Shown: one piece after another, positions 11,954 to 59,190 of the stretch | Position numbering within the stretch: position 1 is the stretch's first letter | Layout of the letters: each line of letters starts with the position of its first letter | DNA from: Ziziphus jujuba | Taxonomy: Eukaryota > Streptophyta > Magnoliopsida > Rosales > Rhamnaceae | Assembly: GCF_031755915.1 (NCBI RefSeq) | Contig: NC_083384.1 | Coordinates: forward strand, 21,140,001-21,204,000 | Reading direction: 5' to 3' | Length of the DNA: 64,000 nucleotides | Notes under the pieces: generated by a model | Seen by the model: the letters and a program-made list of their open reading frames with translations, nothing else | Told to the model about the DNA's origin: nothing | The model's database searches: none | Program-made: the position numbers and the translations under genes

Positions 11954-13095
11954 TGATGTGATTCTGCCCGAGCCCGCTCCACCGATAACCCGCTAAGGTG
12001 CTGACTCAACACAGATGAAGACTAGGCCAATCACAAGAGCTCAAATTAAGAGATTTAAGGACAACCTGGGAGTATTTATACAAGGGGTAATCAATCTCAA
12101 CAGAGCTTGTCCATACTTGAAGATACAAAGCCTATTCTAAGCATCCAAGTGGTGGAAGTCGATACGGACCCGGGTGACGGTTTTGGTACATTTTTGGAGC
12201 CCTAGAAGCATGAAATGGTTCCAATGCTGTATGGGTTCAATACATATGCCTAAGAGGTCATATAATCAAGTTAAAGCAGCCTCAAATGCAATCAAAAAGG
12301 GCTTGTACGGACAGCTTCAACAATTTGGCCGAATTTGCTATATTGCTTGCTGGCTTTACTGTATTTTACTGCATTAGCCTTTTCTTATTTTTCCAAGCAT
12401 GGGAAACGTGTGGGACTTCATATTCAGCTTATTTGGGATCCTAAAAAGCATCTAGAAGCTGATTTGAAGCTCAAAGAGGTCAAAGATTGATCAAAGTCAA
12501 CTTGATCAAAAAGGCTAGCATTTTTAGTTTCCTAATTTGTTTTTACTTTTTGTTTTAGGAAACTAACATTACTTTTTGGCTTTTATTTATTTATTTTCTG
12601 GAAAAAATAACTTTAGGAATGTTTTTATTTTATTCTTTCCATTGTAAATTAATTAATTCCTAATTAAATATAAAGGAATTAATTAATCAAACTTAGATTA
12701 GGAAAGGAAGTATAGTTTTAGCCAACTAGGTTTCTTTATGTGTGGTGGCTGGTTTTCTTTATGTTCTAGGGTTTTATTTCATGGCTTTGTAGCCTATTTA
12801 AAGGCTTATTTTTCAATAAGAATACAACTTTGATTTGATTAAGAAAATACTTGTGAGATTAATTATCTCTTTTTTCTTTGAGAACACCTAAAACACCATT
12901 AGAGAATTGGTTGTTTTAGCTTGACTTATCAATAGGTTTTCCATCCCCTATTGTGGCGTCTACATTATACCAAGGTTTCTAACCACAGGTTGGTTAGGGG
13001 TTGAGGTCAATTCCATTAGAACTTGAACTTAATTAAGATCCGGGCTAATATAATACGGGTTTAGGAGCAGGTCGTCCTAGGTTCGTATCAGTTTC
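11949..13095 (+). repeat. Solo LTR of family 1 with GTTTC target duplication
   Basis: The LTR spans 11954-13090 (1137 bp, TGATG...CGTATCA). It is flanked by GTTTC at 11949-11953 and GTTTC at 13091-13095, and it interrupts the gag of T3 at one codon. No internal sequence remains, so the element was reduced to one LTR by recombination between its LTRs. It includes the TATA-like CTATTTAAAGG (about 12797), the palindrome near 12650-12690 and the two 3'-end hairpins. Confidence 0.95.
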
Positions 13096-14261
13096 CAATA
13101 GTGGAGGATCAATTCCAAGTGGCTGAAGAAGCAATCCTACCTATAAAAGCAATCCAAAGCCGAAAATTGGAGAAGAAAGTTCAAATCGGCCAAGGAGAGA
13201 GACTAGAACGGAATCAATCCAAGCACATTAAAGTGAAGGTAAATCTGATCCTAAGCCTTCTAAAACTCATGAAATTTGGTGTTTTAAGTGTCAAGGATGA
13301 GGACACATCGCTAGCCAATGCCCAAATATGAGGATTATAGTGTTGAAAGGTAATGGCGAACTAGAATCCAAAAGTGAAGAAAGTGATGCTGAAACTGAAA
13401 TTGAAGATGGAGAAGTCGTAGATGATGAGCATGAGGAACCCAAAACACTCCAACCTTTAAGGGCTGACTTGAGCTTAGTTGCAAGGAGGGTCCTTACTGC
13501 ATACAAAGATGAGGATGAAGTACAAAGAGAGAACATCTTCCACACCCGATGTGAAATTCAAAGTAACATATGTAGTATGATCATAGATAGTGGGAGTTGT
13601 GCAAATGTAATTAGTAGCATGGTAGTTGAAAAATTAGGCTTAACAACTATTAAACATCCAGAACCTTATAGATTACAATGGCTTAATGATAGTGATGAGA
13701 TGAAAGTTAATAAACAAGCCAAAGTAAAATTCAATATAGATAAAAATGTGGATGATGTGTTGTGTGATGTTGTGCCTATGTATGCTAGTCATATATTGTT
13801 GGGGAGGCCATGGTAATTTGATAAAGATGCCATACATTATGGGAGAGAGAACTAGATTATTTTTAAGATTAATGGAAAGAAGGTTAAGCGGGAGTCATTG
13901 TCCCCGAATGAGGTTTTTAGAGATCAACTGCAAATGCAACAAAGGAGGCAAGCCGAAAGGCTCAAAGAGAAGGCTAGTATGGTACGAAGGGTTCCAACAT
14001 CCATTCAAGAGGGGAAAGGTGAGCTTGCTATCCAAGGTAAGTCCTCTAAAACCCAAGTTAAGTGGAAAAATTTAAACAAATCTGAGAGTAAGAAAATTGG
14101 AGCAAAAGCCGAGAGTGATGCAAAATTCAATGAATCCGTGAGTGAGAAACGGAAAGAAAGAAAAGAGAGGAAAAATAGATATTTTTATCTTAGCTTTGGT
14201 GATGTTAATAAAGTAATTATGAATAAGAAATCATTGCTGGTCATGAATATTAAAGACACTT
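13096..14261 (+). pseudogene. T3 gag C-terminus and protease
   Basis: The zinc knuckle follows at about 13280-13320 (CFKCQG, then a stop in place of [10 protein letters not shown]). The 162-codon open stretch 13328-13816 is the protease, with an intact DSGSC active site (IIDSGSCANVIS), LQWLND and HILLGRPW. Stops at 13814-13816 and near 13852 interrupt, but the frame continues (13898-14314: LQMQQRRQAERLKEKA, then lysine/glutamate-rich sequence and YLSFGDVNK) up to the mini-pol junction. Protease is the only pol enzyme this element ever encoded. The acidic and basic linker is typical of the family. Confidence 0.75.
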
Positions 14262-14400
14262 ATTTAAAGATGTTTTTGTTGCATAGAAATTTATCTGCAT
14301 TATTGAAAGCTTGACTTAGCGGAAATTTGAAAATTTGGGAGAGATTATTTGCTAAAATTAAAAAGTGTGATGAGCTTGTATTTCTAGTATTTGTTGTGAT
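14262..14400 (+). pseudogene. T3 rearranged mini-pol (IN scrap then RT scrap)
   Basis: After YKD-like wording the sequence jumps at about 14283 to an integrase scrap (matching T10 39824-39882, NRTLSALLR), then at about 14341 to an RT scrap (matching T10 38409-38480, KKC...LVFLGFVV), then at about 14400 to the IN C-terminus. RT and IN scraps are in reversed order relative to normal pol. The catalytic YFDD, RNase H and integrase D,D,E are absent. Junctions are in frame, and one later stop sits at 14312-14314. The same junctions occur in T6 and T11. Confidence 0.85.
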
Positions 14401-14651
14401 AGTCTTTGACCAGGAGATTGGTTTTGGTTTCAACCAAGGAAGCAGAGGTTTCCTGGACAAAGAAAGTCCAAGCTTATGCCGCGAGGAGATGGATCTTTTC
14501 AAGTTAAGGAAAGGATTAATGAAAACACCTACACACTTTATTTACTTGGTGAGTATAATATGAGTGCTACATCAAAAGATGCTGATTTGTTTCCTTTTTC
14601 TGCAGGTGATGGACTAGATTTGAGGACAAATCCTTTTCAAGAGGAGGGGAA
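14401..14651 (+). pseudogene. T3 integrase C-terminal domain and polypurine tract
   Basis: Matches T10 40137-40390: VFD-x-E/GD, PRGDGSFQVKERINENTY and [13 protein letters not shown] one-base loss near 14410 shifts the first part. The polypurine tract AAGAGGAGGGGAA occupies 14639-14651, immediately before the LTR. The open frame runs a further 14 codons into the LTR. Confidence 0.75.
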
Positions 14652-15808
14652 TGATGTGATTCCGTCCGAGCCTGCACAACCGATAACCCGTTAGGGTGCT
14701 GATCCGATATGGATAAAGACCGAGCCAATCAGAAGAGCTCAAATTAAGAGATTTAAGGAAAACCTGGGAGCATTTATATAGGGGCTAATCAATTCTCAAT
14801 AGAGCTTGTCCATACTAGAAGATACAAAGCCTATTCTAAGCATTTAAGTGGTGGAAGCGGATATGGACCCGGGTAGTGATTTTGGTGCAAATATGGACAC
14901 CGAGCAGCATAAAATGGTTCCAACTCTTTATGAATTCAATACATATGTATAAGAGGGTTTTGAATCAATTCAAACCAGCTTCAAAGGCATTCAAAAAGGG
15001 GTTGTACGGACAGCTTCAAATTTGGCCTATTTTCACTGTATTTTGTGCTGGTTTTACTGTATTTTGCTGAGTTGGCTTTTTCTCTTTCTTCCAATCAAGG
15101 GAAACATGTGGGACTTCATGGTCAGCTTATTTTGCATCCTACAAAGCATATTGAAGTTGATTTGGAGCTCAAATTGGTCAAAGAATGGTCAAAGTCAACT
15201 TAGTAAAAAAGCTAGTATTTAGTTTCCTAATTTGATTTTATTTTTTGTTTAAGGGAATTAGTCTTTTATTTTGATTTTTATCTATTTATTTTCTGGAAAA
15301 ATAAGTTTAGAAAAGTTATTATTTTAGTATTTCAATTGTAAATTAATTAATTCCTAATTCAAAATAAAGGAATTAATTAATCCAAATTAGTTTAGGAAAC
15401 TACACAAAATTAGGCACTTTCCTTTTCTCTACTTTCCTTTTCTCTACTTTCTTTTTCTCTGCACTTTGAGTCTAGTTTTGAATTAATTTTTTTAGGGTTT
15501 TTGCTTTTAATCTTAGCCTATTTAAGGCTTATTTTCAATGAGAAATCAGGCTTGAATTTATACAGAAAATTACTTGTGAGATTGAATTCTCTTTGTTCTT
15601 TTGAACACCTAAAACACCATTAGAGAGTGAGTGTTTTAGTTTCACTTATTAATAGGACTTCCATCACCTATTGTGGCATCTTCATTATATACCAAGGTTT
15701 CTAAACACAGATTGGTTAGGGGTCAAGGTGACAATTAGAACTTGAACATAATTAGATTCGGGCTAATATAATACGGGTTTAGGAGTAGGTCATCCTAGGT
15801 TCGTATCA
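14652..15808 (+). repeat. 3' LTR of T3
   Basis: TGATGTGATTCC at 14652 to CGTATCA at 15808 (1157 bp), with typical family 1 landmarks: TATA-like 'cctatttaagg', inverted repeat near 15345-15380, and the hairpin AATAGG/CCTATT. It is bounded by T4 reverse transcriptase sequence. The matching 5' LTR is not in the window. Confidence 0.88.
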
Positions 15809-17598
15809 TTAAGTCCCTGTGCAGTTCCATCTCTCATTGTGGCAAAGAAAGATCAAACTTGGAGAATGTGTGTCGATAGGAGGGCCATTATTAAGATAAC
15901 AATTTAGTATACATTTCCTATCCCTCAGTTAGAAGACATGTTGGACAAATTAGAAGGCTCTCAAATCTTTTCTAATATTAATCTTAAAAGTGGCTATCAC
16001 CATATACGAATTTGACCTGGTTGAATTGAAAACTGCTTTTAAGACAAAAGAAGTTCTTTATGATTGCCAAATTATGCCATTTGGCCTCTACAATGCACCT
16101 AGAACTTTTATACAACTAATTCAAACCTTTCATTGGACATTTTGTTATTATGTACTTTGATGATATTGTCGTGTATAAAAAAAAAAAACAAATATGAGCC
16201 CTTACTCCAAGTTCGAAAAGTATTTCAAGTGCTACGAGAACACAAACTGTATCTTGTATACAGCAAAAATGAAGATGAGCACTTACTCCAACTTTGAAAG
16301 GTATTTCAAATGCTACAAGAACACAAACTGTATATCAGCATCCAAAAATTTAAGTTTGTCATTAATAGCTTACTATTTTTGGCTTCATAATGATCAAAAA
16401 CAGAATACACATAGACCCAAAGAAAATTAAGCCATTCTTAACTATAAGCCATTTAAAAATGTGATTGAACTCTGTAGTTTTAATGGCCTTGCCACCTTTT
16501 ACCAAAGACTCACTAAAAATTTCTATAAGATAGATGCCCCTTTAACTACTAGCCTTAAGAAAAATGAATTCTGATGGAAGCAAGCATAATACAAAATTTT
16601 TTAACTTGATGAAACAACGACTCATTCAAGCCTTGTCCTAACTTTACCAAATTTTGACAAAGTATTTGAAGTGGATATCGATGCCTCTAAGGTAGGAATT
16701 AGGTAGTCTTAATTTAAAAGGGCAGACGCATTGAGTTCTTCTGTGATAAATTATGCCCTGCTTAACAAGATAGACTACTCATAAACAAGAATTGTATGCA
16801 GTTATTTGGGCTCTCAATCAATGAACATTACCTTATGCAAAAAGATTTCATTCTACATAATGATCACCATCCTCTTAAGTATCTCACTTGGAAAAAGAAA
16901 CCCAATGACCTCCATTCTCGATGGCTCAAATTTTTGTAAAAAACTTCATTATGCTTTTAATAACAAAGTTTGCCATAAGAACACTGTAGTTGATACCCTT
17001 AGTTGTAAGTACACCTTACTTACTATTTTGAATTTCAATCTACAAGAATTTACTCAGATTAAATATTTATTTGTTGATGATGGAGATTTTTCATTTATAT
17101 GTGAACAATGTAAATAACATAATAAGATGGAGTATTATGATATTGTTGAAGGATTCCTATTCAAAATTGATTCCATATCGAAGACTTCTTTTTAATAGTT
17201 CATTATACGAGATGTACATTAGAAAGCATTCGCTACCCATGCTGGATGAGATAAAACAACAATGCCATAACTGAATGTTTCTTCTAACCCAAAATGAAAC
17301 CAAATATTGCTTCCCATGATGCTCGATGTTCCATATGTTGGACAGCCAAAGGCCACTCCCAAAATGTTAGCCTCTATACACCGTTACCAATTCCTTCCGC
17401 TATTTAGGAAGATTTATCCATGGATTTTATTACCAACGACCATTCAGCAAGCTGACTCCATTTTTGTTGTTGTAGATAGATTCTCCAAAATGGACAATTT
17501 TATTTCATGTAAGAAAGCTTCTGATATGAGTTACGTAGCTATTCTCTTTTTTCGTAAGGTAGTACATCTTCATGGAAATCCAAATCCATTACCTCTTA
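15809..17598 (+). pseudogene. T4: old gypsy pol, RT to integrase core (first part)
   Basis: A degraded Ty3/gypsy polyprotein of another family, on the plus strand. RT motifs: LSPCAVPSL, then [23 protein letters not shown], and MYFDDIV at about 16150. RNase H remnants lie at about 16640-17010 (DIDASKVGI, a HNDHHPLKYL-like block, TVVDTLS). Integrase lies at 17140-17598, with [23 protein letters not shown] in the 103-codon stretch 17307-17618. Dozens of stops and shifts mark it as one of the oldest elements here. A 79-bp near-repeat occurs at about 16193-16335 (two copies of MSPYSKFEKYFKCYENTNC-like wording). It is interrupted at 17598 by T5 and resumes at 28221. Confidence 0.75.
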
Positions 17599-25930: not shown

Positions 25931-26100
25931 CTAGCTATGATTTATAAAGATGTTTTTGTTGTATAGAACTTTATCTGCATTGTTGAGAGTTTTACTTAGT
26001 GGAAATTTGAAAATTTGGGAGAGATTATATGTTAACTTTAAAAAGTGTGATTTCTGCAAAGATAAATTGGTATTTCTAGGATTTTTTTATTATAGTGTTT
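25931..26100 (+). pseudogene. T6 rearranged mini-pol
   Basis: Same structure as in T3 and T11. After MIYKD (25940-25950) comes an integrase scrap (25964-26021, [12 protein letters not shown]), an RT scrap (26022-26088, KKCDFCKDKLVFLGF), then the IN C-terminus from about 26095. RT YFDD, RNase H and the D,D,E core are absent. A further small loss (AAAGATG repeat) removed about 13 bp at the first junction, after the founder rearrangement. Confidence 0.85.
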
Positions 26101-26341
26101 GACCCAGGAGATTTGGTTTGGTTGCACTAAAGGAATGAGAGGTTTCCCGAACAAGGTCCAAGCTTATGCCACGTGGAGATGGACCATTTCAAGTTTTGGA
26201 ACGGATTAATGAAAATGCTTGCAAACTTGATTTACCGAGTGAGTATAATGTTAGTGCTACATTTAATGTTGTTGACTTATCTTCTTTTACTGCAAGTAAT
26301 GATTTTTATTTGAAGGCAAATCCTTTTCAAGAGGAGGGGAA
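26095..26341 (+). pseudogene. T6 integrase C-terminal domain and polypurine tract
   Basis: [15 protein letters not shown] sequence with a shift, then an open stretch from 26166 ([45 protein letters not shown]) that runs 14 codons into the 3' LTR. The polypurine tract AAGAGGAGGGGAA lies at 26329-26341. Confidence 0.8.
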
Positions 26342-27474
26342 TGATGAAAATTTGCCTGTGCCTTCACAACCGACAATCCGCTGAGGTGCTTACTCGATAC
26401 GGATAAAGATTGGGCCAATCACTAGAGCTCAAGCCAATAAATTGAAGGACAACCTGGCTGATTTTATACAGGGACTGATTAATTCTCAAAAGGGCTTGTC
26501 AGTATCCAAAGGTACAAAGCTTGTTGTAAGCATCCAAATGGTGGAAGCCATTACGGACCCAGATAGCTATTTTAGTGCAATTATGGACTCTGGGCAGCAA
26601 TGAGTGGATCAAACACTTATTTTATTCAATTTATATCACCAATATACCATGGAATCATTTCAAGGTAGAATCGAAAACATCTAAAACCAGCTTGTACGGA
26701 AAACATCTCAATTTGGCCGAAAATGTGCTGTTTAGCCGCTGGCTTTGACTTTTCTTCTTGTTCAAGCAAGTTTGACTTATTCCAATCAAGGGGCAATGTG
26801 TGGGAATCATTATTAATCATATTTGGAATCCTACATGGCATATGGAAACTAATTTGGAGCTCAAACAAGCTGGAAATTGGTCAAAGATACCTTAGTAGTC
26901 AAACTAGTCAACTAGTTTCCTAATTTGATTTTGACTTTTTGTTTTAGGAAATTAGTTCTATATCTGGTTTTATTAATTTATTTGCTGGAAAAATCAACTT
27001 AGGAAATTTATTATTTTATTATTTTCATTGTAAATTAATTAATTCCTAATTCAAAATAAAAGAATTAATTAATCCAAATTAGTTTAGGAAAGTAGGTGAA
27101 TTTCAGCCAACATGTTTCCTTTTCTCTTTGGTGGCCGATTTTAATCTAAATTTTTAGGGTTTATTGTTTTGTCACTCAAGCCTATTTAAGGGCTTATTTT
27201 TTAGGAAGAACACATGTTTAATAATATTCAGAAAATTAATTGTGAGATAGAATTCTCTTTGTTCTTCTTGAACACCTGAAACACCACTAGATAGTGAATG
27301 TTTTAGTTTTGACTTATCAATAGGACTTCTATAACCTATTATGGCATCTTCATTATACCAAGGTTTTTAATTATAGGTTGGTTAAAGTTAAGGTTTCCAT
27401 AAGAACTTGAACTTAATTGAGATCCGAGCTAATATAATACGGGTTTAAGTGCGAGTCGACCTGGGTTCGTATCA
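26342..27474 (+). repeat. 3' LTR of T6
   Basis: TGATGAAAATTTGCC to CGTATCA, 1133 bp and full length. It has the palindrome near 27035-27072, a TATA-like 'cctatttaagggc' near 27181 and a partly decayed second hairpin. It differs visibly from the 5' LTR, so the insertion is old. Confidence 0.88.
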
Positions 27475-33279: not shown

Positions 33280-33972
33280 TGATGCGAATCCACCCGAGAC
33301 TGCTCGACCGACAACCCGCTGGGGTGCTAACCCAATACAAATGAAGGTGGGACCGATCACTAGGGCCCAAGCCAAGAAGTTCAAGGACAATCTTGCTGTC
33401 TTCATACAAGGAATAAGTCATAGTCAAGAGGGGCTGGCCACATCTAAAGAACCAAGGCTTGTTTTACTCATACAAGCAATAGAAGCCAAAACAGGGTCAG
33501 GTGACGTTTTTGGTGATAATAAGGAGGCCGGGTTGTATGAATTGGAACCCCATCCTTATGGGTTCAATTCATATGGAGGATGAGTCATAGAAACCAGCCA
33601 AAGCAGCTTCAAAGCCGACCAACAAGGTGGTTTGCGCACAAGGAGAAGGAAAGGCCGGATTTGCTGTATTCCTTGCTGGCTTTACTGCATTTTATTGTAT
33701 TAGCCTTTTCTCATACTTCCAAGCAAGGGAAACGTGAGGAACTTCACAATAAGCTTATTTGGCATCCTACAAAGCATATTGAAGCTGATTTGGAGCTCAA
33801 TTTGGTCAAAGATTGGTCAAAGTCAATTTAGTCAAAAACGCTAGTATTATAGTTTCCTAATTTTATTCTACTTTTTGTTTTAGGAAACTACCATTATTTT
33901 TTAGTTTTTATTTATTTATTTTCTGGACAAATAAGTTTAGGAAAGTTATTATTTTATTATTTTCATTGTAAA

Positions 33973-34010
33973 TTAATTAATTCCTAATTCAAAATAAAGG
34001 AATTAATTAA
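33973..34010. repeat. 13-bp perfect inverted repeat in the family 1 LTR
   Basis: TTAATTAATTCCT and its exact complement AGGAATTAATTAA, separated by 12 bases. The same palindrome recurs in the LTRs of T2, T3, T6, T11, T12, T15 and the solo LTR, with spacer changes. Confidence 0.9.
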
Positions 34011-34118
34011 TCCAAATTAGTTTAGGAAAAGGAAAGTTTCGGCCAAGGTAGACTTCTTCATTGTGTGGCCGGTTTTTCCTAGGGTTTTTAGGGTTTATTT
34101 TGTTTCTTTCAAAAGCCT

Positions 34119-34125
34119 ATTTAAA
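34119..34125 (+). promoter_or_regulatory. Putative TATA box of T10 5' LTR
   Basis: TATTTAAA within the near-palindrome AGCCTATTTAAAGGCT, about 290 bp before the LTR end. It is conserved in family 1 LTRs and in the T14 LTR (CCTATTTAAAGGC near 55546). The position suits the U3/R boundary; function is inferred. Confidence 0.6.
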
Positions 34126-34252
34126 GGCTTATTTTTCAATAATAATACAACTTTGATTTGATTAAGAAAATACTTGTGAGATTAATTATCTCTTTGTTCT
34201 TTGAGAACACCTAAAACACCATTAGAGAATTGGTTGTTTTAGCTTGACTTAT

Positions 34253-34320
34253 CAATAGGTTTTCCATCCCCTATTGTGGCGTCTACATTATACCAAGGTT
34301 TCTAACCACAGGTTGGTTAG
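34253..34320 (+). promoter_or_regulatory. Two conserved hairpins in the R/U5 part of the LTR
   Basis: Stem 1 is CAATAGG (34253-34259) with CCTATTG (34270-34276). Stem 2 is CTAACC (34302-34307) with GGTTAG (34315-34320). Both are present at the same place in T12 (51736-51805) and in the other subfamily T14 (55682-55750). Stem 2 shows compensatory changes. They would lie in the 5' end of the RNA, just before the PBS. Confidence 0.6.
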
Positions 34321-34416
34321 GGGTTGAGGTCCATTCCATTAGAACTTGAACTTAATTAAAGATCCGGGCTAATATAATACGGGTTTAGGAGCAGGTCGTC
34401 CTAGGTTCGTATCATT

Positions 34417-34430
34417 TGGTATCATAGCTA
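34417..34430 (+). other. Primer binding site of T10, iMet type
   Basis: TGGTATCATAGCTA, two bases after the LTR. One mismatch in 12 to the initiator tRNA-Met site TGGTATCAGAGC. Confidence 0.9.
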
Positions 34431-35594
34431 AATTTTGTTCAGGTTTGATCTATCTTTATTTGCTTTATTTGTTTTTGTGTTATTCTGCAATTTTAGCATT
34501 AGGTTAAGGTTGCATCCATCCTATACACGTTCAGCATCTTAAAAAAAAAAAAAAAAAAAATTCATTCCTAGTTGAATTAGGATTTCCTAGTTTTATCGTA
34601 TTTTTGTTTCCTAGTTTGTTGGTTCTCTTTTATCATTGTTCTTGTTAATTTAGTTTTTGTTGATTTTTCTTTGCTGTTTTAGTCTTAAATATTTGCATTC
34701 ATATATTCAAAAAAAAAAAAAAAAGAAAACAGGAAAAAAAAAAAGTTTGCGGCAACATTTAAAAAAAAAAAAAAAAAAAACTGCACATTTTGTTTATTTG
34801 GAGGTCACGGGTTTGGTGTTTGTTTTGGAGTTGGAATTGCAATTTTGGTAATTATTCTTGCTACTGCAGTTGTTTATGTTCTGTGAGTGAAAAAAAAAAG
34901 AAGAAAGAAGGTAAAGCCGAATAAAAAAAAAAAAAAAGAGGAAAAAAAAATTATTTCGGTTTGTTGGAGTTTGATTTGTTTGCTGGAATCTTGTTGGAGC
35001 TGCTGGTTTTTTTTTATTATTTATTCAATATTTGAGTTGCTGGGAAATTATTTTTGCTGCTGGATATTTGGATTTTGGGTGTTTAAATTTTTTGGATTAA
35101 AATTAGTTAAAGGAATTGATACAAAACTTGAATTACAAGAACAACAACCAACACTTTTCTATATTTTTGTTCTCTTTGATTCTTGTTCGTATTTGAATTT
35201 CTTTTTCTGGAATTTTATTCTTGAACTCATAATCTACTACCATCTGGTGCAGTTTTCAAAAATTCCAATGTTTTCCCATTATTTTGTGTTTTCTTGACTA
35301 GAAAGCCGAAAAATTAGGATTTGTTGGATTCTTTCGGTATTGCCTACTTTTTGCTACTGTTTTGTTGATAAGTTTAATTAAAACATACTAGTGATCTAAT
35401 TGCTGTTTTGTGGGTGTTTTAATTAGAACTTTGAGATAATTCATTGAGTGGAAAAAGGCAAGAGTGTGTGAGCTTAAAAGAGGGTAAAAGCCGAAACTAG
35501 TGTGTAAACACGAGTGTCGAGACCTTGTTTGAGTGAAACACGTGAGGGAGTGATATTGTGAGGATTTATTTTATTTTTGTAGTATTTTACTAAC
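34431..35594 (+). other. T10 untranslated leader, A-rich
   Basis: About 1.16 kb with long A runs (34542-34560, 34711-34724, 34760-34781, 34922-34950). It ends with 'gtgagggagtga...actaacatg' before gag. Two overlapping ORFs at 34657-35297 are lysine tracts made by the A runs and then hydrophobic T-rich stretches. They are not conserved as coding in T6 or T11. Confidence 0.75.
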
Positions 35595-38500
35595 ATGGCA
35601 GATTCTAGAATAAGAAGAGGGGATCCACCCTTGAGGATCAATGAGGAAGAGTCCGTAGCATTCCATGGCGATGACCGAGCTACCGGGAATGGAGACCAAG
35701 TGGATATGAGAGCTGTCTTGGAATCAATACAGCGGGTTAGTGCTCAAGTTGAGCATGTGAATCAAAGAGTGGGAAGACTAGAAGCCTCACAAGGAAGGCC
35801 GAATACAAGAAATAGGCAAGAATTCCATGGAGGACGAGGCCGAGGACGAGGAGGTCGCGAGAGGCCGAGAGAGGAATTTGATGAGGATCCATTCGACGGT
35901 GACTTTGAGGAAGGTATGGACGAAACCTTTGCTGTCCAAGATAGAGCTGGCCGTGGGAGATATAGGAGGGAAGATACAGATGATGATTTGGGAAATATCA
36001 AGGTTAATATCCCACCTTTTATGGGTAAAAGTGATCCCGAAGCTTATTTGGAGTGGGAAGAGAAAATGGAGATGATTTTTGACTGCCACAACTATTCGGA
36101 AGGTAAGAAGGTGAAGTTGGCAGCAATGGAGTTTGGCCATTATGCACTCCAATGGTGGACAAATGAGCAAAGCACCCGAAGGAGAGTTGGTGATGACTTA
36201 ATTACAACATGGCGACAAATGAAAGGAGCCATGAGGAAGCTGTTTGTGCCATCCCATTACCATAGGTTGCTGCATCAAAGGCTTCAATCTTTGTCTCAAG
36301 GAAGTAGGTCCGTGGAGGATTATTACAAAGAGATGGAGATGTTAATGATGAGGCTGAATATGAATGAGGATAGGGAGGCAACCATGGCAAGATTTCTTGG
36401 AGGGTTAAACCGAGACATTGCCAACCAACTTGAATTACAACAATACTTGGAATTGGAGGAGATGTTGCATGTAGCCATTAAGCTTGAGAACCAATTCAAG
36501 AGGATGGGTGTTAGTACACGGTTTGGAGGAGTTTCTAGCAGTGGAAGGACAAGTTCAAGTGGCTGGAAAAACAATTCCACTTATGAAAACAAGTTGAAGC
36601 CGAAATTGGGAGAAGAATCTACCAACCGGCCAAGAAGGGAGGTCAAGACCGAATCTGTCCAAGCACTTAGAGGTGAGATAAAATCTGATCCTAAACCTCA
36701 AAAATCCAGAGAAATAATTTGTTTTAAGTGCCAAGGAAGAGGACACATAGCCAGCCAATGCCCAAACAGAAGAATCATGGTATTAAAGGGTGATGGTGAG
36801 CTGGAATCCGCAAGTGAAGAAAGTGGGGCTGAAACCGAGCAAGAGGAGGATTGCAATGAAGATGAAGCCGAACCTGTAGATACATCTAATGCCGAGTTGA
36901 GCTTGGTTTCAAGGAAAGTACTTGCTGTCTACAAAGATGAAGAGCAGATACAAAGAGAAAACATCTTCCACACTCGCTGCGAAATACAAGGTAAAATTTG
37001 TAGCATGATTATAGATAATGGGAGTTGTACTAATGTGATAAGTAATCTTGTAGTTGATAAATTAGGCTTGAAAACAATTAAACATCCAGAACCTTATAGA
37101 TTACAATGGCTTAATGATAGTGGTGAGATGAAAGTAAACAAACAAGCCAAAGTAAAATTTAATATAGGTAGATATGAGGATGTAGTTTTATGTGATATTG
37201 TGCCCATGATTGCTGGACATATACTATTAGGTAGACCATGGCAATTTGATAAAGATGCTACTCATTGTGGTCGAGAAAATAGTATTGTTTTCAGGTTTAA
37301 AGGGAAGAAGGTCAAGCTGGAACCATTATCTCCTAAAGAGGTTTACAAAGACCAATTAGAAATGCAACAAAGGAGAGAAGCCGAAAAGCTCAAGGAAAAA
37401 GCAAGTATGGCACCAACGGCTTCACCATCCTTTCAAGAAGGTAAGATTGAGGTTGCTGACCGAGGTAAGGTTTCTAAGGTTCATATTGAGTGGAAAGACC
37501 AAGAAAAAGCTGAGAGAGGGGTGAGAAAAGAGAGCAAACCCGAGAGCACAAAAAATCTGGAAGTTTCCGCCAATGAGAGCCAAACCGAGGAAAGAAAAAA
37601 AAAAGAAAGAAAAGAGAGGAAAAACCAGAATTTTTATTTGAGTTTAGGGGGTATTAATAAGGTTATTGAGTGTAAGAAACCTATGCTGGTCATGCTTTAC
37701 AAAGAAAATTATTTTAATGATCAAACTAACTTTGAAGAACTTGAATTGCCAAGTTCAATGATTTCTCTTTTGAAGGAATTTGGAGATGTCTTCCCAAGTG
37801 AGATTCCAAGTGGACTACCACCTATTCGAGGGATAGAACATCAAATTGACTTTGTTCCAGGGGCTGCCATACCAAATAGACCAGCTTATAGGAGCAATCC
37901 CGAAGAAACAAAGGAGCTGCAAAAACAGGTAAGTGATTTGCTTGATAAAGGATACATTCGTGAGAGTTTAAGTCCATGTGTTGTTCCTGTTTTGTTGGTA
38001 CCTAAAAAGGATGGTTCTTGGAGAATGTGTGTTGATTGTAGGGCTATAAATAATATTACCATCAAATATAGACATCCCATTCCTAGATTAGATGATATGC
38101 TTGATGAGTTGCATGGTGCTTGCATGTTTACAAAAATTGATCTTAGGAGTGGTTATCACCAAATTAGGATGAAAGAAGGTGATGAATGGAAAACCGCATT
38201 CAAAACTAAATATGGACTGTATGAATGGTTAGTTATGCCTTTTGGATTATCCAATGCACCTAGTACTTTCATGAGGCTTATGAATCATGTAATGCGTCCA
38301 TTTATTGGTAAATTTGTGGTTGTTTATTTTGATGACATTCTAATATATAGCCGAAATTTGGATGACCATGTGGATCAACTTAGGCAAGTTTTGCAAGTTC
38401 TTAGAAAGGAAAGATTATTTGCTAACATTAAAAAATGTGAATTTTGCAAAGAAGAGCTTGTGTTTCTAGGTTTTGTAGTAAGTGCTGCAGGAATCAAAGT

Positions 38501-40037
38501 TGACCAAGCTAAGGTGAAAGCAATTCAAGAGTGGCCGGTTCCTACTTCTATCACCCAAGTGAGGAGCTTTCATGGCTTGGCAAGTTTTTACCAAAGATTT
38601 GTCAAGGATTTTAGTACCATAGCAGCACCATTGAATGAAGTTGTCAAGAAGAATGTTGGTTTCAAATGGGGGGAAGTACAAGAAAAATCTTTTAATTTGT
38701 TGAAAGAAAAATTGTGTAATGCACCTTTGTTAGTTTTGCCAAATTTTTCTAAGACTTTTGAAATTGAATGTGATGCTTCGGGTGTAGGTATTGGAGCTGT
38801 TTTAATGCAAGAAGGAAGGCCCATAGCCTACTTTAGTGAAAAATTGAATGGAGCTGCCCTAAACTACCCGACTTATGACAAGGAGATGTATGCTTTGGTG
38901 AGGGCTTTGGAGACGTGGCAGCATTATCTTATGCCAAAGGAGTTTGTGATTCATACGGATCATGAGTCTTTGAAGCATATCAAGGGTCAAGGAAAGCTCA
39001 ACCGAAGGCATGCTAAGTGGATTGAGTTTATTGAAACATTTCCATATGTGATCCGCTACAAAAAAGGTAAGGAAAATGTGGTTGCCGATGCATTATCCCG
39101 AAGGTATGTGCTCTTTTCTACCTTAGATGCTAGGTTGCTTGGATTTGAACAATTGAAAGAACTTTATGAGCATGATAGTGACTTTGGAGAAATTTTTAGA
39201 ACCTGTTTGAAACATGGATTTAATAAATTTTACATATTTGAGGGATATTTGTTTAAAGAAAACAAACTTTGTGTGCCTAATTGTAGTATTAGGGAATTAT
39301 TGGTTCGGGAAGGACATGGGGGTGGTTTAATGGGTCATTTTGGTATTTTAAAAACTTTATCCTTGCTGCAAGAACATTTTTATTGGCCTAACATGAGGAG
39401 AGATGTTGAGAGAATTTGTGAAAGATATTTGAAGTGCCGAAAAACAAAATCAACATTGAAACCGCATGGATTGTATAAGCCTTTGCCGATTCCTACCTAT
39501 CCTTGGGTAGATTTGTCTATGGATTTTATTCTTGGGTTGCCTAGGTCAAGGACAGGTAAGGATTCAATATTTGTTGTGGTAGATAGGTTTTCTAAGATGG
39601 CACATTTTATTGCATGTAACAAAACTGATGATGCATCCAATATTGCTAACTTATTTTTCAAGGAAATTGTGAGATTGCATGGAATGCCAAGAACTATTGT
39701 GTCGGATAGGGATGCTAAGTTCTTAAGCTATTTTTGGAAAACATTGTGGGCTAAATTAGGTACTAAGCTTTTATTTTCAACTACTTGTCATCCACAAACT
39801 GATGGACAAACCGAAGTAGTAAATAGAACCTTGTCTGCATTGTTGAGAGCATTAATTAGTAGAAATTTAAGGACTTGGGAAGAATGTTTGCCACATGTTG
39901 AATTTGCATATAATAGGTCTTTACATTCAGCAACTAAATTTACTCCATTTGAAATTGTTTATGGTTTTAATCCTTTGACTCCATTAGATTTAACACATTT
40001 GCCTTTAAGTGAGCGTGCTAATCTAGATGGAAAATAA
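35595..40037 (+). CDS. Gag-Pol polyprotein of T10 (CRM-like), truncated at its C-terminus
   Basis: Single ORF of 1480 residues. Gag: the MADSR start is shared by T6 and the equivalent start in T2 and T11; Gly/Arg-rich region about 76-95; gag domain about 135-305 ([36 protein letters not shown]); CCHC knuckle 376-389 ([14 protein letters not shown]). Protease: Asp474 in IIDNGSC (usual DSG is DNG), [11 protein letters not shown]849 ([10 protein letters not shown]), YFDD 911-914. RNase H: D1060 (ECDAS), an acidic YDKEM near 1097, D1122 (HTDHE). Integrase: HGGGLMGH zinc region with CERY where CERC is expected, D1310, D1371 and E1407 (spacing DX35E). The protein would stop at TAA 40035-40037; T2 has Gln there (GKQKTDF). 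All enzymatic cores are complete, so it may supply functions to defective copies. That role is inferred. Confidence 0.93.
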
Positions 40038-40463
40038 AAAGCTGATTTTGTAAAGCAGATTCATGAGAAGACCTGAGCAAACATTGAGAGGAGGACCGAG
40101 CAATATGCAAGGGTGGCTAATCAAGGCTGAAAATCAATGGTGTTTGAACCTGGAGATTGGGTGTGGCTGCATTTAAGGAAAGAAAGATTCCCCGAACAAA
40201 GGAAATCAAAACTCATGCCGAGGGGTGATGGACCTTTTCAAGTTTTGGAGAGGATAAACGACAATGCCTACAAACTTGATCTACCGGGTGAGTATAGTGT
40301 TAGTGCCACCTTTAATGTTGCTGATTTATCTCCTTTTGCTGCAGGTGATGACTTCGATTTGAGGACAAATCCTTTTCAAGAGGAGGGGAATGATGCGAAT
40401 CCACCCGAGACTGCTCGACCGACAACCCGCTGGGGTGCTGACCCAATACAAATGAAGGTGTGA
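40038..40463 (+). pseudogene. T10 integrase C-terminal domain and pol tail, cut off by stops
   Basis: In frame with the preceding ORF but separated by TAA (40035-40037), TGA (about 40074) and TGA (about 40129). All three are explainable as C-to-T changes or single substitutions relative to T2. The open part 40137-40463 has [46 protein letters not shown] and [12 protein letters not shown], then crosses the PPT and enters the LTR ([12 protein letters not shown]) to a TGA at 40461. In the 5' LTR the equivalent codon is open (GGA), so the frame there runs on to 33583 through GPITRAQAKKFKDNL. No classical chromodomain is seen. Confidence 0.82.
40378..40390 (+). other. Polypurine tract of T10
   Basis: AAGAGGAGGGGAA immediately before the 3' LTR. 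The identical tract is at the same place in T3 and T6, and it lies inside coding sequence (QEEGN). Confidence 0.92.
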
Positions 40464-41525
40464 CCGATCACTAGGGCCCAAGCCAAGAATTTCAAGGACA
40501 ATCTTGTTGTCTTCATACAAGGAATAAGTCATAGTCAAGAGGGGTTGGCCACATCTAAAGAACCAAGGCTTGTTTTACTCATACAAGCAATAGAAGCCAA
40601 AACAGGGTCGGGTGACGTTTTTGGTGATAATAAGGAGGCCGGGTTGTATGAATTGGAACCCCATCCTTATGGGTTCAATTCATATGGAGGATGAGTCATA
40701 GAAACCAGCCAAAGCAGCTTCAAAGCCGACCAACAAGGTGGTTTGCACACAAGGAGAAGGAAAGGCCGGATTTGCTGTATTCCTTGCTGGCTTTACTGTA
40801 TTTTACTGTATTAGCCTTTTCTCGTACTTCCAAGCAAGGGCAACGTGAGGAACTTCACAATAAGCTTATTTGGCATCCTACAAAGCATATTGAAGCTGAT
40901 TTGGAGCTCAATTTGGTCAAAGATTGATCAAAGTCAATTTAGTCAAAAAAGCTAGTATTATAGTTTCCTAATTTTATTCTACTTTTTGTTTTAGGAAACT
41001 ACCATTATTTTTTAGTTTTTATTTATTTATTTTCTGGACAAATAAGTTTAGGAAAGTTATTATTTTATTATTTTCATTGTAAATTAATTAATTCCTAATT
41101 CAAAATAAAGGAATTAATTAATCCAAATTAGTTTAGGAAAAGGAAAGTTTCGGCCAAGGTAGACTTCTTCATTGTGTGGCCGGTTTTTCCTAGGGTTTTT
41201 AGGGTTTATTTTGTTTCTTTCAAAAGCCTATTTAAAGGCTTATTTTTCAATAATAATACAACTTTGATTTGATTAAGAAAATACTTGTGAGATTAATTAT
41301 CTCTTTGTTCTTTGAGAACACCTAAAACACCATTAGAGAATTGGTTGTTTTAGCTTGACTTATCAATAGGTTTTCCATCCCCTATTGTGGCGTCTACATT
41401 ATACCAAGGTTTCTAACCACAGGTTGGTTAGGGGTTGAGGTCCATTCCATTAGAACTTGAACTTAATTAAAGATCCGGGCTAATATAATACGGGTTTAGG
41501 AGCAGGTCGTCCTAGGTTCGTATCA
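40391..41525 (+). repeat. 3' LTR of T10
   Basis: 1135 bp, TGATGCG to CGTATCA, followed by the TTCTT target copy. The last 575 positions appear identical to the 5' LTR. The first 560 hold at least 13 differences, 9 of them transitions, including the G-to-T that creates the TGA at 40461-40463. Confidence 0.96.
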
Positions 41526-41784
41526 TTCTTGCTGCTTGAAGTCCGTATTTGCACGAAAACAGCTACACAGTTCCGTATCAGCCTCCACCACTTGGATACT
41601 TCAAATGGGCTTTGTATCTTCGGGTATTTATAAGCCCTTATGAGAGGTAACTACTCCCTATATAAAGGCAGCCAGGTTGTCCTTAAATCTTGGCTTGAGC
41701 TCTAGTGATTGACCCGGTCTTCTTCCGTATCGAATCAGCACCTTAGTGGGTTGTTGGTTGTGCGGGTTAGGCGGATTCTCATCA

Positions 41785-45036: not shown

Positions 45037-45183
45037 TGAAAATGAATTACCCCCTGGATAAAGGCAGCAAGATTTTCATTAAACCTCTAAGCTTGAGCCC
45101 TAGTGATCGGTTTGGTCTTCATCTGTATCGGGTTAATACCCCAGCGGGTTGTCGGTTGTGTGAGCTCGGACGGATTCGCATCA
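45037..45183 (-). repeat. T11 3' LTR, first 147 bp
   Basis: Starts TGATGCGAATCC at 45183 after the PPT. The pol reading runs on through it ([24 protein letters not shown]), as in the ORF 45440-45087. It is cut at about 45037, where T9 protease-linker sequence begins. Confidence 0.8.
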
Positions 45184-45440
45184 TTCCCCTCCTCTTGAAA
45201 AGGATTTGTCCTCAAATCAAGATCATCACCTGCAGAAAAAAGAGATAAATTAGCAACATTAAATGTCGTACTAACAATATACTTACCTGTTAAATCAAGT
45301 TTGTAGGGATTCTCGTTAATCCACTCCATAACTTGAAAAGGTCCATCCACACACGGCATGACCTTTGACTTTCTTTGTTTTGGAAACCTCTCCTTTCGTA
45401 AGTGCAACCAAACCAAATCTCCTGGGTCAAACACTATCAC
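45087..45440 (-). pseudogene. T11 integrase C-terminal domain with tail into the LTR
   Basis: A 117-codon open stretch: [59 protein letters not shown], then the LTR-encoded [20 protein letters not shown]. It joins in frame to the RT scrap upstream. This is the clearest case of the pol tail extending into the LTR next to the mini-pol. Confidence 0.8.
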
Positions 45441-45600
45441 AACAAAATCTAGAAATCCATGCTCATTATGGCAAAAATTACACTTTTTAAATTTAGCAAA
45501 TAATCTCTTTCAAATTTTCAAATTTCCACAAAGTAAAGCTCTCAACAAGGCAGATAAAGTTCTATACTACAAAAGCATTTTTAAATAAGCATCTTTATAA
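45436..45600 (-). pseudogene. T11 rearranged mini-pol
   Basis: Minus strand: YKDAYLKMLL ends in a TAG (45569-45567), then the integrase scrap 45566-45511 ([12 protein letters not shown]), the RT scrap 45510-about 45440 ([13 protein letters not shown]...FVV), then VFDPGDLVW in the same frame. The second junction lies in a shared 'gaaaGA/gggaGA' context. Stops here (TAG, one TGA at the IN/RT border) are later mutations; T3 and T6 are open at those codons. Confidence 0.86.
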
Positions 45601-46440
45601 TTCATGACCAACAATGATTTCTTATTCAAAATAGATTTATTAACATCCCCAAAAGTCAAATAAAAATTTTTATTTTTCCTTTCTTTTCTACCTTTTCCTT
45701 TCTCACTCACGGTTTCATTGAATTTTGCATCACACTCGGCTTTTTCTCTAAGTTTTTCTTTCTCGAGTTTGTTAAAATTTTTCCACTCAACCTGGGTTTT
45801 AAAGGACTTACCTTGGACAGCAACCTCACCTTTTCCCTTTTGAATGGATGGTGAAATCGTTGGTGACATAGTAGCCTTTTCTTGGAGCTTCTCTTTCCCA
45901 TAATGTATGGCATGTTTATCAAATTGTCATGGCCTCCCCAACAATATATGACCAGCATGCATAGGCACAACATCACACAACACAACATCCACATATTTAT
46001 CTATGCTAAATTTTACTTTGGCTTGTTTATACACTTTCATCTTACCACTATCATTAATCCATTGTAATCTATATGGTTTGAGATGTTTAATAGTTGTGAA
46101 GCCTAATTTATCAACCACAATGTTACTAATTACATTTGTATAACTTCCACTATCAATAATCATATTACAAATCTTACCTTGGATTTCACATCGGGTGTGG
46201 AAGATATTTTCCCTTTGAACTTGATCCTCATCCTTGTATACAGCAAGTACTCTCTTAGATACCAAGTTTAATTTGGCATTGGATGCATGGAGTGTCTCAG
46301 CTTCATCTTCAAGTTCTTCCTCTCCTTGCTCGGTCTCACACTCACTTTCTTCACTTTTCGATTCTAGCTCACCATTACCCTTTAACACCATGATTCTTCT
46401 ATTCGGGCATTGGCTAGCGATGTGTCCTTATCCCTAGCAC
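45601..46440 (-). pseudogene. T11 protease and linker
   Basis: The 154-codon open stretch 46391-45927 starts after the knuckle (IMVLKGNGELESKSEES) and holds IIDSGSYTNVISN (DSG present, Cys changed to Tyr) and HILLGRP. Around 45900 the sequence jumps from YGK to the EKATM part of the linker, removing about 90 bp, probably between GAGA repeats. The linker 45869-45600 follows (YLTFGDVNKSIL). Knuckle remnant near 46440-46400 ([11 protein letters not shown]). Confidence 0.78.
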
Positions 46441-47557
46441 TTAAAATAAATAATTTCTCTAGATCTTGAAGGTTTAGGATCAGATTTTACCTTATTCTTT
46501 GGTGCTTTGACAGATTCGGCTTTGGACTCCCTTTTTGGCTGATTTAACTTTCTTCTCCAACTTTTGACTTTAGGTTGTTTTCAAAGGTAGGATTGTTTCT
46601 CCAGCCACTTGGATTTGATCCTCCACTATTGGAAACACCTCCAAACCATGAGCCTACAACCCTCCTCTTGAATTGATGCTCTAATTTAATAGCCACATGA
46701 AACATCTCCTCCAATTCCACATAATATTGTTACATATCTAGTTGATTGGCTATTTCACAATTCAAACCACCGACAAACCTTGCCATGGTTGATTCTCTAT
46801 CTTCATTCATACTTGACCTCATCATAAGCATCTCCATCTCCTTGTAATAATCCTCCACAGACCTAGTTCCTTGAGATAAAGATTGAAGTCTTTGATGCAG
46901 CAATCTATGATAATGTGATGGTACGAACCGCTTCCTCATAGCTCCTTTCATTTGTCGCCATGTAGTGATCAAGTCATCACCAACTTTCCTTTGGGTGTTT
47001 TGCTCATTGGTCCACCATTGGAGTGCATAATGACCAAATTCCATTGCTGCCAATTTCACCTTTTTAGCCTCTGAATAGTTGTGGCAATCGAAGATCATTT
47101 CCATACATTCTTCCCATTCCAAGTAAGCCTCCGGGTCATTTTTCCCCATGAAAGGTGGTATGTTTACCTTGATGTTGCCAAGATCATCATCTACCTCCTC
47201 TCTCCTATGCCTCCCATGGCCTAGCCTATCTTGGACAGCAAGTGTTTCATCTGTTCCTTCCTTAAAATCATCTCCAAAATATTCCTTTTCAAACACCTCT
47301 CTACACTGTCCATGGCCTCCTCGACTTCCATGGAACTCTTGCCTCAAATTTGGTCCACCATGAAATATTTCTATTCTATCCATCCTTTGATTTATGTGGT
47401 CAAATTGAGCATTCATCCACTGCAATTATTCCAAGATAGCCCTCATGTCCGTTTGTTCACCACTCCCCATAGCGCAGGAATCACCATGGAATCCTACGAA
47501 TTCTTCTTCATTGATTCTTAGTGGTGAATCTCCTCTCCTCAATCTTGAATCTGCCAT
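46441..47557 (-). pseudogene. T11 gag
   Basis: Starts ATG at 47557 (MADSR-like). The 231-codon stretch 47425-46730 is the gag domain: [82 protein letters not shown]. It ends at a stop where T10 has LQQYLEL. C-terminal remnants continue to 46441. One of the best preserved gag copies after T10. Confidence 0.82.
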
Positions 47558-56633: not shown

Positions 56634-57790
56634 ATGTCACAAGACCAAAGCAAAGAAAGCGTGGAAGGAACTCCAGGTGTGGCTGATCCAAAGTTATACA
56701 TTCAAGCCATGGTGGGAGAACTTCAAAGAGCACTACAGTTGGAGATGGGGCAGATTCATGATTGGTTGGATAGGATGGAATCATTTATCCAAATGCCACA
56801 GCAACGACCTCCACAAAGGTTTGCTCATGGACGTGGTAGAGGAAGAAATAGTCCAAGAAGGGAAGACTGGGAACCAGTGGGAGATGACTATGAGGAAGAA
56901 GAGGAAGACATTTGTTCGGGAACCAATCAATTCCATGGGAGAGATAGGTTAGACCGAGGCAATGACTATGGAGGAATTAAGATCAAAATACCATCATTCC
57001 AAGGTAAAAGTGATCCAAAAGCATATCTCGAGTGGGAGAAGAGAATTGAGATGGTATTTGATTGTCAGAACTACTCCGAGGCTGAAAAGGTTAAATTAGC
57101 CACCATTGCATTCACAGACTATACTATTGGATGGTGGGACAAAAAGACACTTTCTGAAGGTGAGCAGGTCAAAGACCTATAGATACATGGGTGGAGATGA
57201 AGGCTTTGATGAGGAAGCGTTTCGTACCTAGCCATTACTATGGAAGCATTTTTTAGAAACTACAAAGCTTGTCTAAAGGAAATAGGAGTGTGGAGGACTA
57301 TTATAAGGAGATGGAAATCCTTATGATGAAGGCCAATGTTGAGGAGGATAGGGAGGCTACAATGGCACGTTTCTTGGCTGGTTTGAATAAGGAAATAGCA
57401 AATCAAGTGGACTTGCATCATTATGTGGAGATTGAGGAGATGTTGCATATGGCCATCAAAGTAGAACAACAACTCAAAAGGAGGGATACCACAAGACCTA
57501 GTATTGCTCAAAACACTTGGAAAGCAAGCCCATCCACATGGAAACACAATCAGCCCAAGTTTGAAGATAAAGCCACCACATGGCCTAAATCCAAAGTTAA
57601 GGCCGAACCATACTCATCCAAGCAAGTAAGTAAATCCGATTCATCTTCAACTAGATATCAAGATATCATGTGCTTTAAATGTCAAGGCAGGGGTCATATT
57701 GCAAGTGAATGTCCAAATAAGAGGGTCATGGTGATTTGGGAAAGTGGAGACATTGAAACTGAAGAGGAAGAGTCAGATAATGAATCCATG
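56634..57790 (+). pseudogene. T14 gag (frameshifted)
   Basis: Starts ATG at 56634 (MSQDQSKESVEG). An Arg/Gly segment (HGRGRGRNSPRRE) and an acidic stretch precede the gag domain (GGIKIKIPSFQGKSDPKAYLEWEKR, CQNYSEAEKVKLATIAF). A shift and stop at about 57180 break it. The second frame, from 57269, continues [29 protein letters not shown] and LHHYVEIEEMLHMAIKVEQQLKRR. The CCHC knuckle [14 protein letters not shown] at 57670-57711 is intact. Confidence 0.83.
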
Positions 57791-58754: not shown

Positions 58755-59190
58755 TTGCTTGAGAAGGTATATGTTAGAGAAAGCATGAGTTCATGTGTTG
58801 TACCTGTGTTATTAGTCCCTAAGAAAGATGGAACATGGAGAATGTGTGTAGATTATATGGCTATTAACAATATAACTGCCAAATATCATCATCCTATTCC
58901 TAGGTTAGATGATATGCTTGATGAATTGTATGGTGCATGCATGTTTTCAAAAATTGATCTTAAAAGCGGTTATCATTAAATTCGCATGAAGGAAGGTGAT
59001 GAATTGAAAACAGCATTTAAAATAAAGCATGGTTTGTATGAGTGGTTAGTTATGCCATTTGGGTTAACTAATGCGCCTAGTACTTTTATGATACTTATGA
59101 ATCACATTTTGCATGCTTACATTGGAAAGTTTGTGGTTGTGTACTTTGATGATATCCTTGTATATAGTAGGAGTTTAGAAAAGCATGTAG
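58755..59190 (+). pseudogene. T14 reverse transcriptase, cut by T15
   Basis: [38 protein letters not shown] (first catalytic Asp), a stop at 58977-58979 (TAA for Gln), then [10 protein letters not shown] and [13 protein letters not shown]. It ends in EKHV at 59190, where the minus-strand LTR of T15 begins. Target copy TGTAG at 59186-59190; the other is outside the window. Confidence 0.85.

What the first reader, a model, noticed from the sequence alone, without database searches (positions are those of the whole stretch)
14262..14400. A recurrent, frame-preserving scrambled mini-pol defines a non-autonomous CRM-like subfamily
Three elements (T3 at 14262-14400 +, T6 at 25931-26100 +, T11 at 45600-45436 -) have the same three junctions. 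After protease and its linker comes an integrase scrap (T10 39824-39882), then an RT scrap (T10 38409-38480), then the integrase C-terminus (T10 40140 onward). The two scraps are in reverse order compared with normal pol, so a simple deletion cannot make this; template switching during reverse transcription could. The ancestral frame stays open across all joins (clearest in T11 and T3). RT YFDD, RNase H and D,D,E are all gone, while gag, DSG protease, PPT and LTRs (and, where preserved, the PBS) remain. Three separate insertion sites with the same junctions mean the founder multiplied in this form, presumably using RT and integrase from full copies like T10.
Basis: partly seen in the sequence, partly recalled or inferred. 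Interest (0 to 1): 0.88.

Follow-up and report, generated by a model that had tools for sequence, protein, structure and literature searches.

The report
Jumping gene family with scrambled pol
Hundreds of copies of a stripped-down plant retrotransposon share one odd rearrangement of their replication gene, and surviving relatives suggest it arose in two steps, a plain deletion and then an out-of-order patch; this is a new variant of a well-known kind of parasite-like mobile DNA.

Summary
T3, T6 and T11 carry protease linker | integrase (IN) scrap | reverse-transcriptase (RT) scrap | IN C-terminus, with the two scraps in reverse order relative to full-type T10. It is a genome-wide subfamily: 949 places match the IN|RT join at <=3 mismatches, reversed-pattern control 0. 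It multiplied in this form: 6 of 10 LTR pairs examined have perfect, mutually different 5-bp target duplications.

The RT|IN-C-terminus join also occurs alone, as a collinear deletion with RT running unbroken into it (81 exact places; 21 of 21 loci read). Matched patterns give full type 671, RT-bearing deletion 81, scrambled 206, the fourth combination 1. Simplest history: a plain deletion first, then most of RT replaced by a patch of IN from another element.

Gag-protease carries a codon-position signal of past selection; the scraps carry none and the IN C-terminus little.

The kind is known: non-autonomous CRM elements (hop, coffee, sorghum, rice) and 'semi-autonomous' gag-protease elements (wheat). 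New are this two-step chimera and its preserved intermediate. The host is inferred to be jujube.

The parts
13331..13939 (+). T3: gag zinc-knuckle/protease region
   Evidence: tblastn 70% to T10; Pfam Asp_protease_2 on 13301-13813
13940..14266 (+). T3: protease linker
   Evidence: tblastn to T10
14284..14340 (+). T3: IN scrap (junction J1 at its start, J2 at its end)
   Evidence: BLASTN to T10 39824-39880
14339..14397 (+). T3: RT scrap, with the 12-nt in-frame deletion
   Evidence: BLASTN to T10 38409-38479
14402..14659 (+). T3: IN C-terminus after junction J3, running into the 3' LTR
   Evidence: BLASTN to T10; Pfam SH3_Tf2-1
14652..15810 (+). T3: 3' LTR (TGATG...TATCA), preceded by the polypurine tract
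25964..26020 (+). T6: IN scrap
26019..26084 (+). T6: RT scrap (no 12-nt deletion)
26095..26346 (+). T6: IN C-terminus
45520..45564 (-). T11: IN scrap
45439..45506 (-). T11: RT scrap
45174..45434 (-). T11: IN C-terminus; its frame runs on into the 3' LTR
45891..47203 (-). T11: gag and protease region
   Evidence: tblastn; Pfam Retrotrans_gag
33280..41527 (+). T10: full-type element used as yardstick; LTRs 33280-34416 and 40391-41527, target duplication TTCTT
38409..38480 (+). T10: RT stretch corresponding to the RT scrap
39824..39882 (+). T10: IN stretch corresponding to the IN scrap

Best explanation
A large non-autonomous subfamily of CRM-type (Ty3/gypsy chromovirus) LTR retrotransposons. Shown: copies keep gag, protease, primer-binding site, polypurine tract and LTR ends, lack the catalytic parts of RT, RNase H and integrase, and inserted with their own target duplications. 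Inferred: they replicate in trans, their RNA being packaged with that of full-type relatives and copied and inserted by the relatives' enzymes, while the copies may themselves supply Gag and protease. Pol was most likely lost in two steps. First, a collinear deletion fused RT, shortly after its YFDD region, in frame to the IN C-terminus (J3); that RT-bearing form multiplied. Second, in such a lineage, synthesis jumped at short homologies (seen by eye) from the RT tail into the IN gene and then into the protease linker, replacing most of RT with a ~57-nt IN patch (J2, J1). As the first-step form lacks that IN segment, the patch would have come from a different, IN-bearing element, as co-packaging and template switching would give. 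The product multiplied into the scrambled subfamily. The scraps look like a leftover, not a working domain.
For: Joins and order. Numbers: J2 949, J3 2026, controls 0. Of 20 exact-J3 places sampled down the list, 18 are scrambled, 1 (L059) has RT running unbroken into J3, 1 (L075) has linker|RT tail. RT+J3 query: 40 of 40 scored places, the query itself included, span the join at 86-100%; 21 of 21 loci read confirm it. Four-way exact counts 671/81/206/1. The single fourth-class element L099 has its own different join, and with it as query 39 of 39 other scored places stop at J3. TSDs 6 of 10 (2-22 end combinations tried per element). Shared cis signals. Gag-protease codon signal p 4e-9.
Against: The order of the two steps rests on class counts; recombination is common (mosaic linkers; interleaved IN C-terminus tree), so the RT+J3 class could itself be a recombinant. 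RT-tail diversity does not separate ages (RT+J3 0.176, scrambled 0.165). The RT+J3 class was not dated and its gag, protease and LTRs were not read. The gag-protease signal may partly be imported: 42 of 170 shared minor alleles equal the T10 state versus 6 of 247 singletons. No expression, packaging or helper evidence. Pattern sensitivity differs by class (11 of 21 known RT+J3 loci tagged).
Confidence: 0.7

Rival explanations
1. One multi-jump reverse-transcription event made all three joins in a single founder; the RT+J3 class arose later by recombination of scrambled copies with full-type elements inside the ~70-nt RT tail.
For: Recombination among these elements is evident; scrambled copies are more numerous than RT+J3 (206 versus 81) and about as diverse in the RT tail.
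Against: Needs a crossover in ~70 nt followed by amplification to at least 81 copies; J3 alone is an ordinary deletion and needs no scrambling; in the IN C-terminus tree most RT+J3 copies sit apart from scrambled and full-type ones (short alignment, weak).
Confidence: 0.18
2. The IN patch was put in at the DNA level (break repair with filler, or nested insertion and illegitimate recombination in repeat-dense pericentromeres) in one genomic copy, which was then transcribed and multiplied.
For: The elements are nested and dense here, and a 57-nt patch at a deletion looks like filler DNA too; PMC4079200 (passages) names illegitimate recombination of nested copies as an alternative to template switching.
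Against: Both ends of the patch fall at short homologies in frame with homologous template positions (by eye); no single-copy DNA-level precursor was found. The two are not separated by my data.
Confidence: 0.25
3. The mini-pol encodes a working small protein (for instance a targeting tail) kept by selection.
For: All pieces are joined in one frame; 28 of 33 blocks have no stop and the common 12-nt deletion is in frame; the C-terminal SH3-like domain is still recognised.
Against: No codon-position bias of shared variants in the scraps (3/4/4 and 7/6/7); IN C-terminus p 0.47 and 0.07; 10 of 33 blocks carry a stop or frameshift.
Confidence: 0.1
4. Segmental duplication or assembly artefact.
For: Two of the three window copies lie about 12 kb apart in a repeat-dense region.
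Against: 949 places genome-wide, six different TSDs, LTR pairs each diverged by their own amount (K 0.042-0.129).
Confidence: 0.01

Closest known systems
noaCRM of hop, Humulus lupulus (PMC12371157; section 19 read in full, other passages)
   Same: CRM element with gag and protease kept, RT, RNase H and INT missing, C-terminal targeting side kept, shared PBS with autonomous copies, several hundred copies (446 dominant), centromeric
   Different: No reordered scraps or RT-bearing intermediate are described in the section read; host differs
Non-autonomous coffee, sorghum and rice centromeric elements (PMC5818461, PMC4079200, PMC2222647; passages)
   Same: Non-autonomous derivatives of centromeric retrotransposons, multiplied; sorghum ones lack or truncate RT and integrase
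   Different: Passages seen describe deletion or absence, not an out-of-order patch; the rice source paper (Nagaki 2005) is not held
RLG_Sabrina_SA, 'semi-autonomous' GAG-Pro element of wheat (PMC9744471, passages)
   Same: Keeps a gag-protease frame only and is thought to be part of a cooperative set with an autonomous helper
   Different: Different lineage and host; works alike, not a relative by any test here
TR-GAG elements, e.g. AT5TE33540 (PMC8704663, passages; Chaparro 2015 not opened)
   Same: LTR element with gag but no pol; transposition observed in Arabidopsis ddm1, so mobilisation in trans is real for this kind
   Different: TR-GAG has a gag frame only; here protease and an IN C-terminus remain; copia in that example
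CRJ / CRM-type elements of jujube centromeres (PMC12596083; parts 1-2 of the text, sections 8-9 and find results read)
   Same: Probably the same host and centromeres; CRM-type LTR clade J2 dated 2.46 Mya, of the order of the ages found here
   Different: The string 'autonomous' does not occur in its main text, and this subfamily is not described in the parts read

Membership tests
CRM clade chromovirus, group A (features from passages of PMC3059260) | LTR ends TGATG ... (T/C)ATCA | tested here: met
   TGATG...TATCA in T10, T3 and most of the 11 elements printed
CRM clade chromovirus, group A (features from passages of PMC3059260) | PBS complementary to the 3' end of tRNA-Met | tested here: met
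   TGGTATCAGAGC right after the 5' LTR; identity as tRNA-iMet complement is recalled
CRM clade chromovirus, group A (features from passages of PMC3059260) | Polyprotein frame extends into the 3' LTR | tested here: met
   T10 frame 40131-40460 runs past the LTR start at 40391; T11 frame 45509-45087 likewise
CRM clade chromovirus, group A (features from passages of PMC3059260) | RT falls in the CRM clade | not tested
   No reference tree was built
CRM clade chromovirus, group A (features from passages of PMC3059260) | CR motif at the IN C-terminus | tested here: inconclusive
   A stretch in T10 and T11 resembles the motif as I recall it; no alignment to reference motifs
CRM clade chromovirus, group A (features from passages of PMC3059260) | Concentrated at centromeres | tested here: met
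   29 of 81 exact-J2 places within 1 Mb and 54 of 81 within 3 Mb of published jujube centromere midpoints, versus 6.1% and 18.3% of the genome; depends on the host inference
Non-autonomous CRM (noaCRM-type) | RT, RNase H and IN catalytic domains missing, gag and protease retained | tested here: met
Non-autonomous CRM (noaCRM-type) | Multicopy with LTRs and target duplications | tested here: met
   949 places; 6 of 10 TSDs
Non-autonomous CRM (noaCRM-type) | Mobilised by autonomous relatives | not testable with these tools
   Full-type relatives coexist (671 matched places), but helper use was not tested
TR-GAG | Single gag frame, no pol-derived sequence | tested here: not met
   Protease and IN C-terminus remain; it works like a TR-GAG but is not filed as one

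The most novel reading that the evidence does not exclude
The IN patch is a fossil of template switching between two co-packaged RNAs, a first-step (RT-bearing, IN-less) element and a full-length one. The genome keeps the whole series: intact, RT fused to the IN tail, and scrambled. The stepwise decay of an autonomous centromeric retrotransposon into a gag-protease passenger, through an intermediate that kept RT but not RNase H or IN and still multiplied, can be read directly.
Probability: 0.5. Interest if true: 0.55.

Novelty: new variant of a known kind. Interest (0 to 1): 0.42.

Why it matters
Gag-protease passengers of centromeric retrotransposons are known in several plants, but how they lose pol is usually only inferred. 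Here the joins are exact markers, and the classes (671 / 81 / 206 / 1 in matched patterns) coexist in one assembly, so the order of losses, recombination between helpers and passengers, and what passengers still need to encode can be tested by counting and dating. If the host inference is right, it also names a sizeable component (about 950 junction places) of jujube pericentromeres that the papers I saw do not describe.

Tried and rejected
Segmental duplication and assembly artefact: rejected by TSDs and genome-wide spread. Scrambled copies outnumbering full types: tested, not so. Selection on the scraps: tested, no signal. Dating the class order by RT-tail diversity: inconclusive (one search crashed on an empty row, on an indentation slip). 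IN C-terminus tree (55 of 55 rows): not usable for the order because classes interleave. In one search minus-strand loci were not turned, so only its plus-strand rows are used. An 11th LTR pair (L057, printed) was dropped before the counts because its 5' partner lies at an odd spacing; shorter or mismatched pairs of L040, L050, L052, L053 and L054 were not used. The proximity contrast between full-type and scrambled places uses only listed exact matches on three contigs and may reflect age as well as targeting. Rice noaCRR source paper: not held. Paper searches for template-switch or reordered-pol origins (listings only) listed nothing that I recognised as this arrangement; that is no proof of absence.

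Full report
Observation. BLASTN inside the window confirms that T3, T6 and T11 carry protease linker, then about 57 nt of integrase (T10 39824-39882), then about 60-70 nt of RT (T10 38409-38480), then the integrase C-terminus (T10 40140 onward). The two scraps are in reverse order compared with T10. The pieces are in one reading frame. None of the three copies is open across the block: T3 has a stop at 14312 and a 1-nt deletion, T11 two stops, T6 a 1-nt insertion. Pfam on single pieces finds gag, protease, RT, RNase H, IN zinc finger and core and the SH3-like C-terminus in T10, but only the C-terminal domain in the mini-pol pieces of T3 and T11.

Host. The assembly has 393.8 Mb in 14 contigs, 12 of them large. 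Contig layout and clusters of copies fit the published jujube chromosomes and CENH3-mapped centromeres (PMC12596083); the window, at C6 21.14-21.20 Mb, falls inside the reported ChrB06 centromere, 20.68-21.25 Mb, though not inside ChrA06, 18.92-19.49 Mb. The tool names no organism, so this is an inference.

A dispersed subfamily. The join between IN and RT scraps occurs at 949 places with up to 3 mismatches in 28 nt, reversed-pattern control 0. The block is contiguous in all 40 scored places of each of two searches, T3 itself included (only the 40 best of 3515 and 1853 candidates are scored). Of 20 T3-like copies fetched with flanks, ten LTR pairs were used. Six of the ten have perfect 5-bp target duplications, all different (2-22 end combinations were tried per element). 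LTR divergence is K 0.042-0.129, about 1.6-4.9 My at the 1.3e-8 rate quoted in PMC5818461, against 0.0115 for T10. These ten were chosen by likeness to T3, so they are not a random sample. PBS, PPT and LTR ends match T10 in most of them.

Intermediates. The RT|IN-C-terminus join J3 occurs at 2026 places, twice as many as the IN|RT join; part of the difference may be drift in the J2 stretch. Twenty exact-J3 places taken down the list (100 were listed) were read: 18 carry the scrambled block; L059 has RT, with an intact YFDD, running in frame into J3; L075 joins the protease linker directly to the RT tail. With RT+J3 of L059 as query, all 40 scored places, itself included, span the join at 86-100%, and 20 of 20 further loci fetched confirm it, though several have mutated YFDD or frameshifts. 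So a simple collinear deletion is a multicopy class of its own.

Four-way count. Exact gapped patterns of similar length, first checked on known loci, gave: RT upstream and RT downstream 671; RT upstream and J3 downstream 81; IN scrap upstream and J3 downstream 206; IN scrap upstream and RT downstream 1. Sensitivity on known RT+J3 loci was 11 of 21, so these are relative counts. The single fourth-class element, L099, has RT continuing about 130 nt beyond J3, interrupted by an inserted LTR, and a different join to the IN C-terminus. That join is spanned at 3 further places of 40 scored. With L099 as query, 39 of 39 other scored places stop at J3. L099 is therefore most easily read as a recombinant, and the class counts favour J3 first and the IN patch second. 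If so, the patch came from another element, since the RT+J3 form has no such IN segment to copy. The order is inferred: recombination is clearly common (the linker comes in two types beside nearly the same block; the IN C-terminus tree interleaves scrambled and full-type rows), and RT-tail diversity does not separate the ages.

Selection. In 28 T3-like copies (31 taken, 3 dropped for disrupted flanks) variants shared by at least three copies in gag-knuckle/protease fall on codon positions 52/40/118, against 102/111/92 for singletons (p 4e-9). In 18 copies with like linkers the protease core gives 29/19/59 against 37/39/40 (p 0.003). The linker gives p 0.03 in the first set and 1.0 in the second; the IN C-terminus p 0.47 and 0.07. 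The scraps give 3/4/4 (IN) and 7/6/7 (RT) in 33 copies; 28 of 33 blocks lack a stop and 23 of 33 lack both stop and frameshift. In the RT+J3 class RT gives 26/11/36 against 45/56/55 (p 0.06) and the IN C-terminus p 0.33. Gag-protease was thus under coding constraint in the history of these copies, while the mini-pol shows little or none. Part of that signal may have come in from full-type relatives (42 of 170 shared minor alleles equal the T10 state versus 6 of 247 singletons).

Distribution. Of 81 exact-J2 places, 29 lie within 1 Mb and 54 within 3 Mb of centromere midpoints that I took from PMC12596083, against 6.1% and 18.3% of the genome. On C1-C3 the median distance is 3.1 Mb for 23 exact-J2 places and 5.9 Mb for 100 exact full-type IN places (p 0.001).

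Comparison. Non-autonomous CRM elements with gag and protease kept and RT, RNase H and IN lost are described in hop (PMC12371157, section 19 read), and non-autonomous centromeric elements in coffee, sorghum and rice (PMC5818461, PMC4079200, PMC2222647; passages; that rice noaCRR is the non-autonomous form is recalled). Semi-autonomous GAG-Pro elements exist in wheat (PMC9744471, passages), and transposition of a gag-only element has been seen in Arabidopsis (PMC8704663, passages). The main text of the jujube centromere paper does not hold the string 'autonomous'. This case is therefore a new variant of a known kind; the novelty lies in the reordered patch and the preserved RT-bearing intermediate.

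Noticed in passing
L075 (G000:C7:19572236-19573063, minus strand): A further derivative: protease linker joined directly to the RT tail (apparent GATCA overlap) and then to the IN C-terminus at J3, without the IN scrap.
   Followed up: partly
L099 (around G000:C7:23690865-23690951, plus strand): The only found element with the IN scrap but RT continuing past J3; it has its own RT|IN-C-terminus join and an inserted LTR with an AAACC duplication. That join spans three more places.
   Followed up: partly
window 56946-59189 (+): A partial element with gag, protease, linker and RT (79% to T10) cut off where an LTR-like stretch begins at 59191.
   Followed up: no
window 15806-17582 (+): RT, RNase H and IN pieces only 34-38% identical to T10, so a different Ty3/gypsy-like lineage next to T3's 3' LTR.
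   Followed up: no
window 11954-13093 (+): An LTR-like stretch (81% to T10's LTR) inserted in T3's gag.
   Followed up: no
T3-like copies, linker equivalent of window 13900-14262: Two linker types (about 72-74% alike) sit beside nearly the same block (about 96% alike), a sign of recombination between element lineages.
   Followed up: partly
G000 contigs C1-C3: Exact full-type IN places lie farther from the centromere midpoints (median 5.9 Mb, n 100) than exact scrambled-join places (3.1 Mb, n 23).
   Followed up: partly
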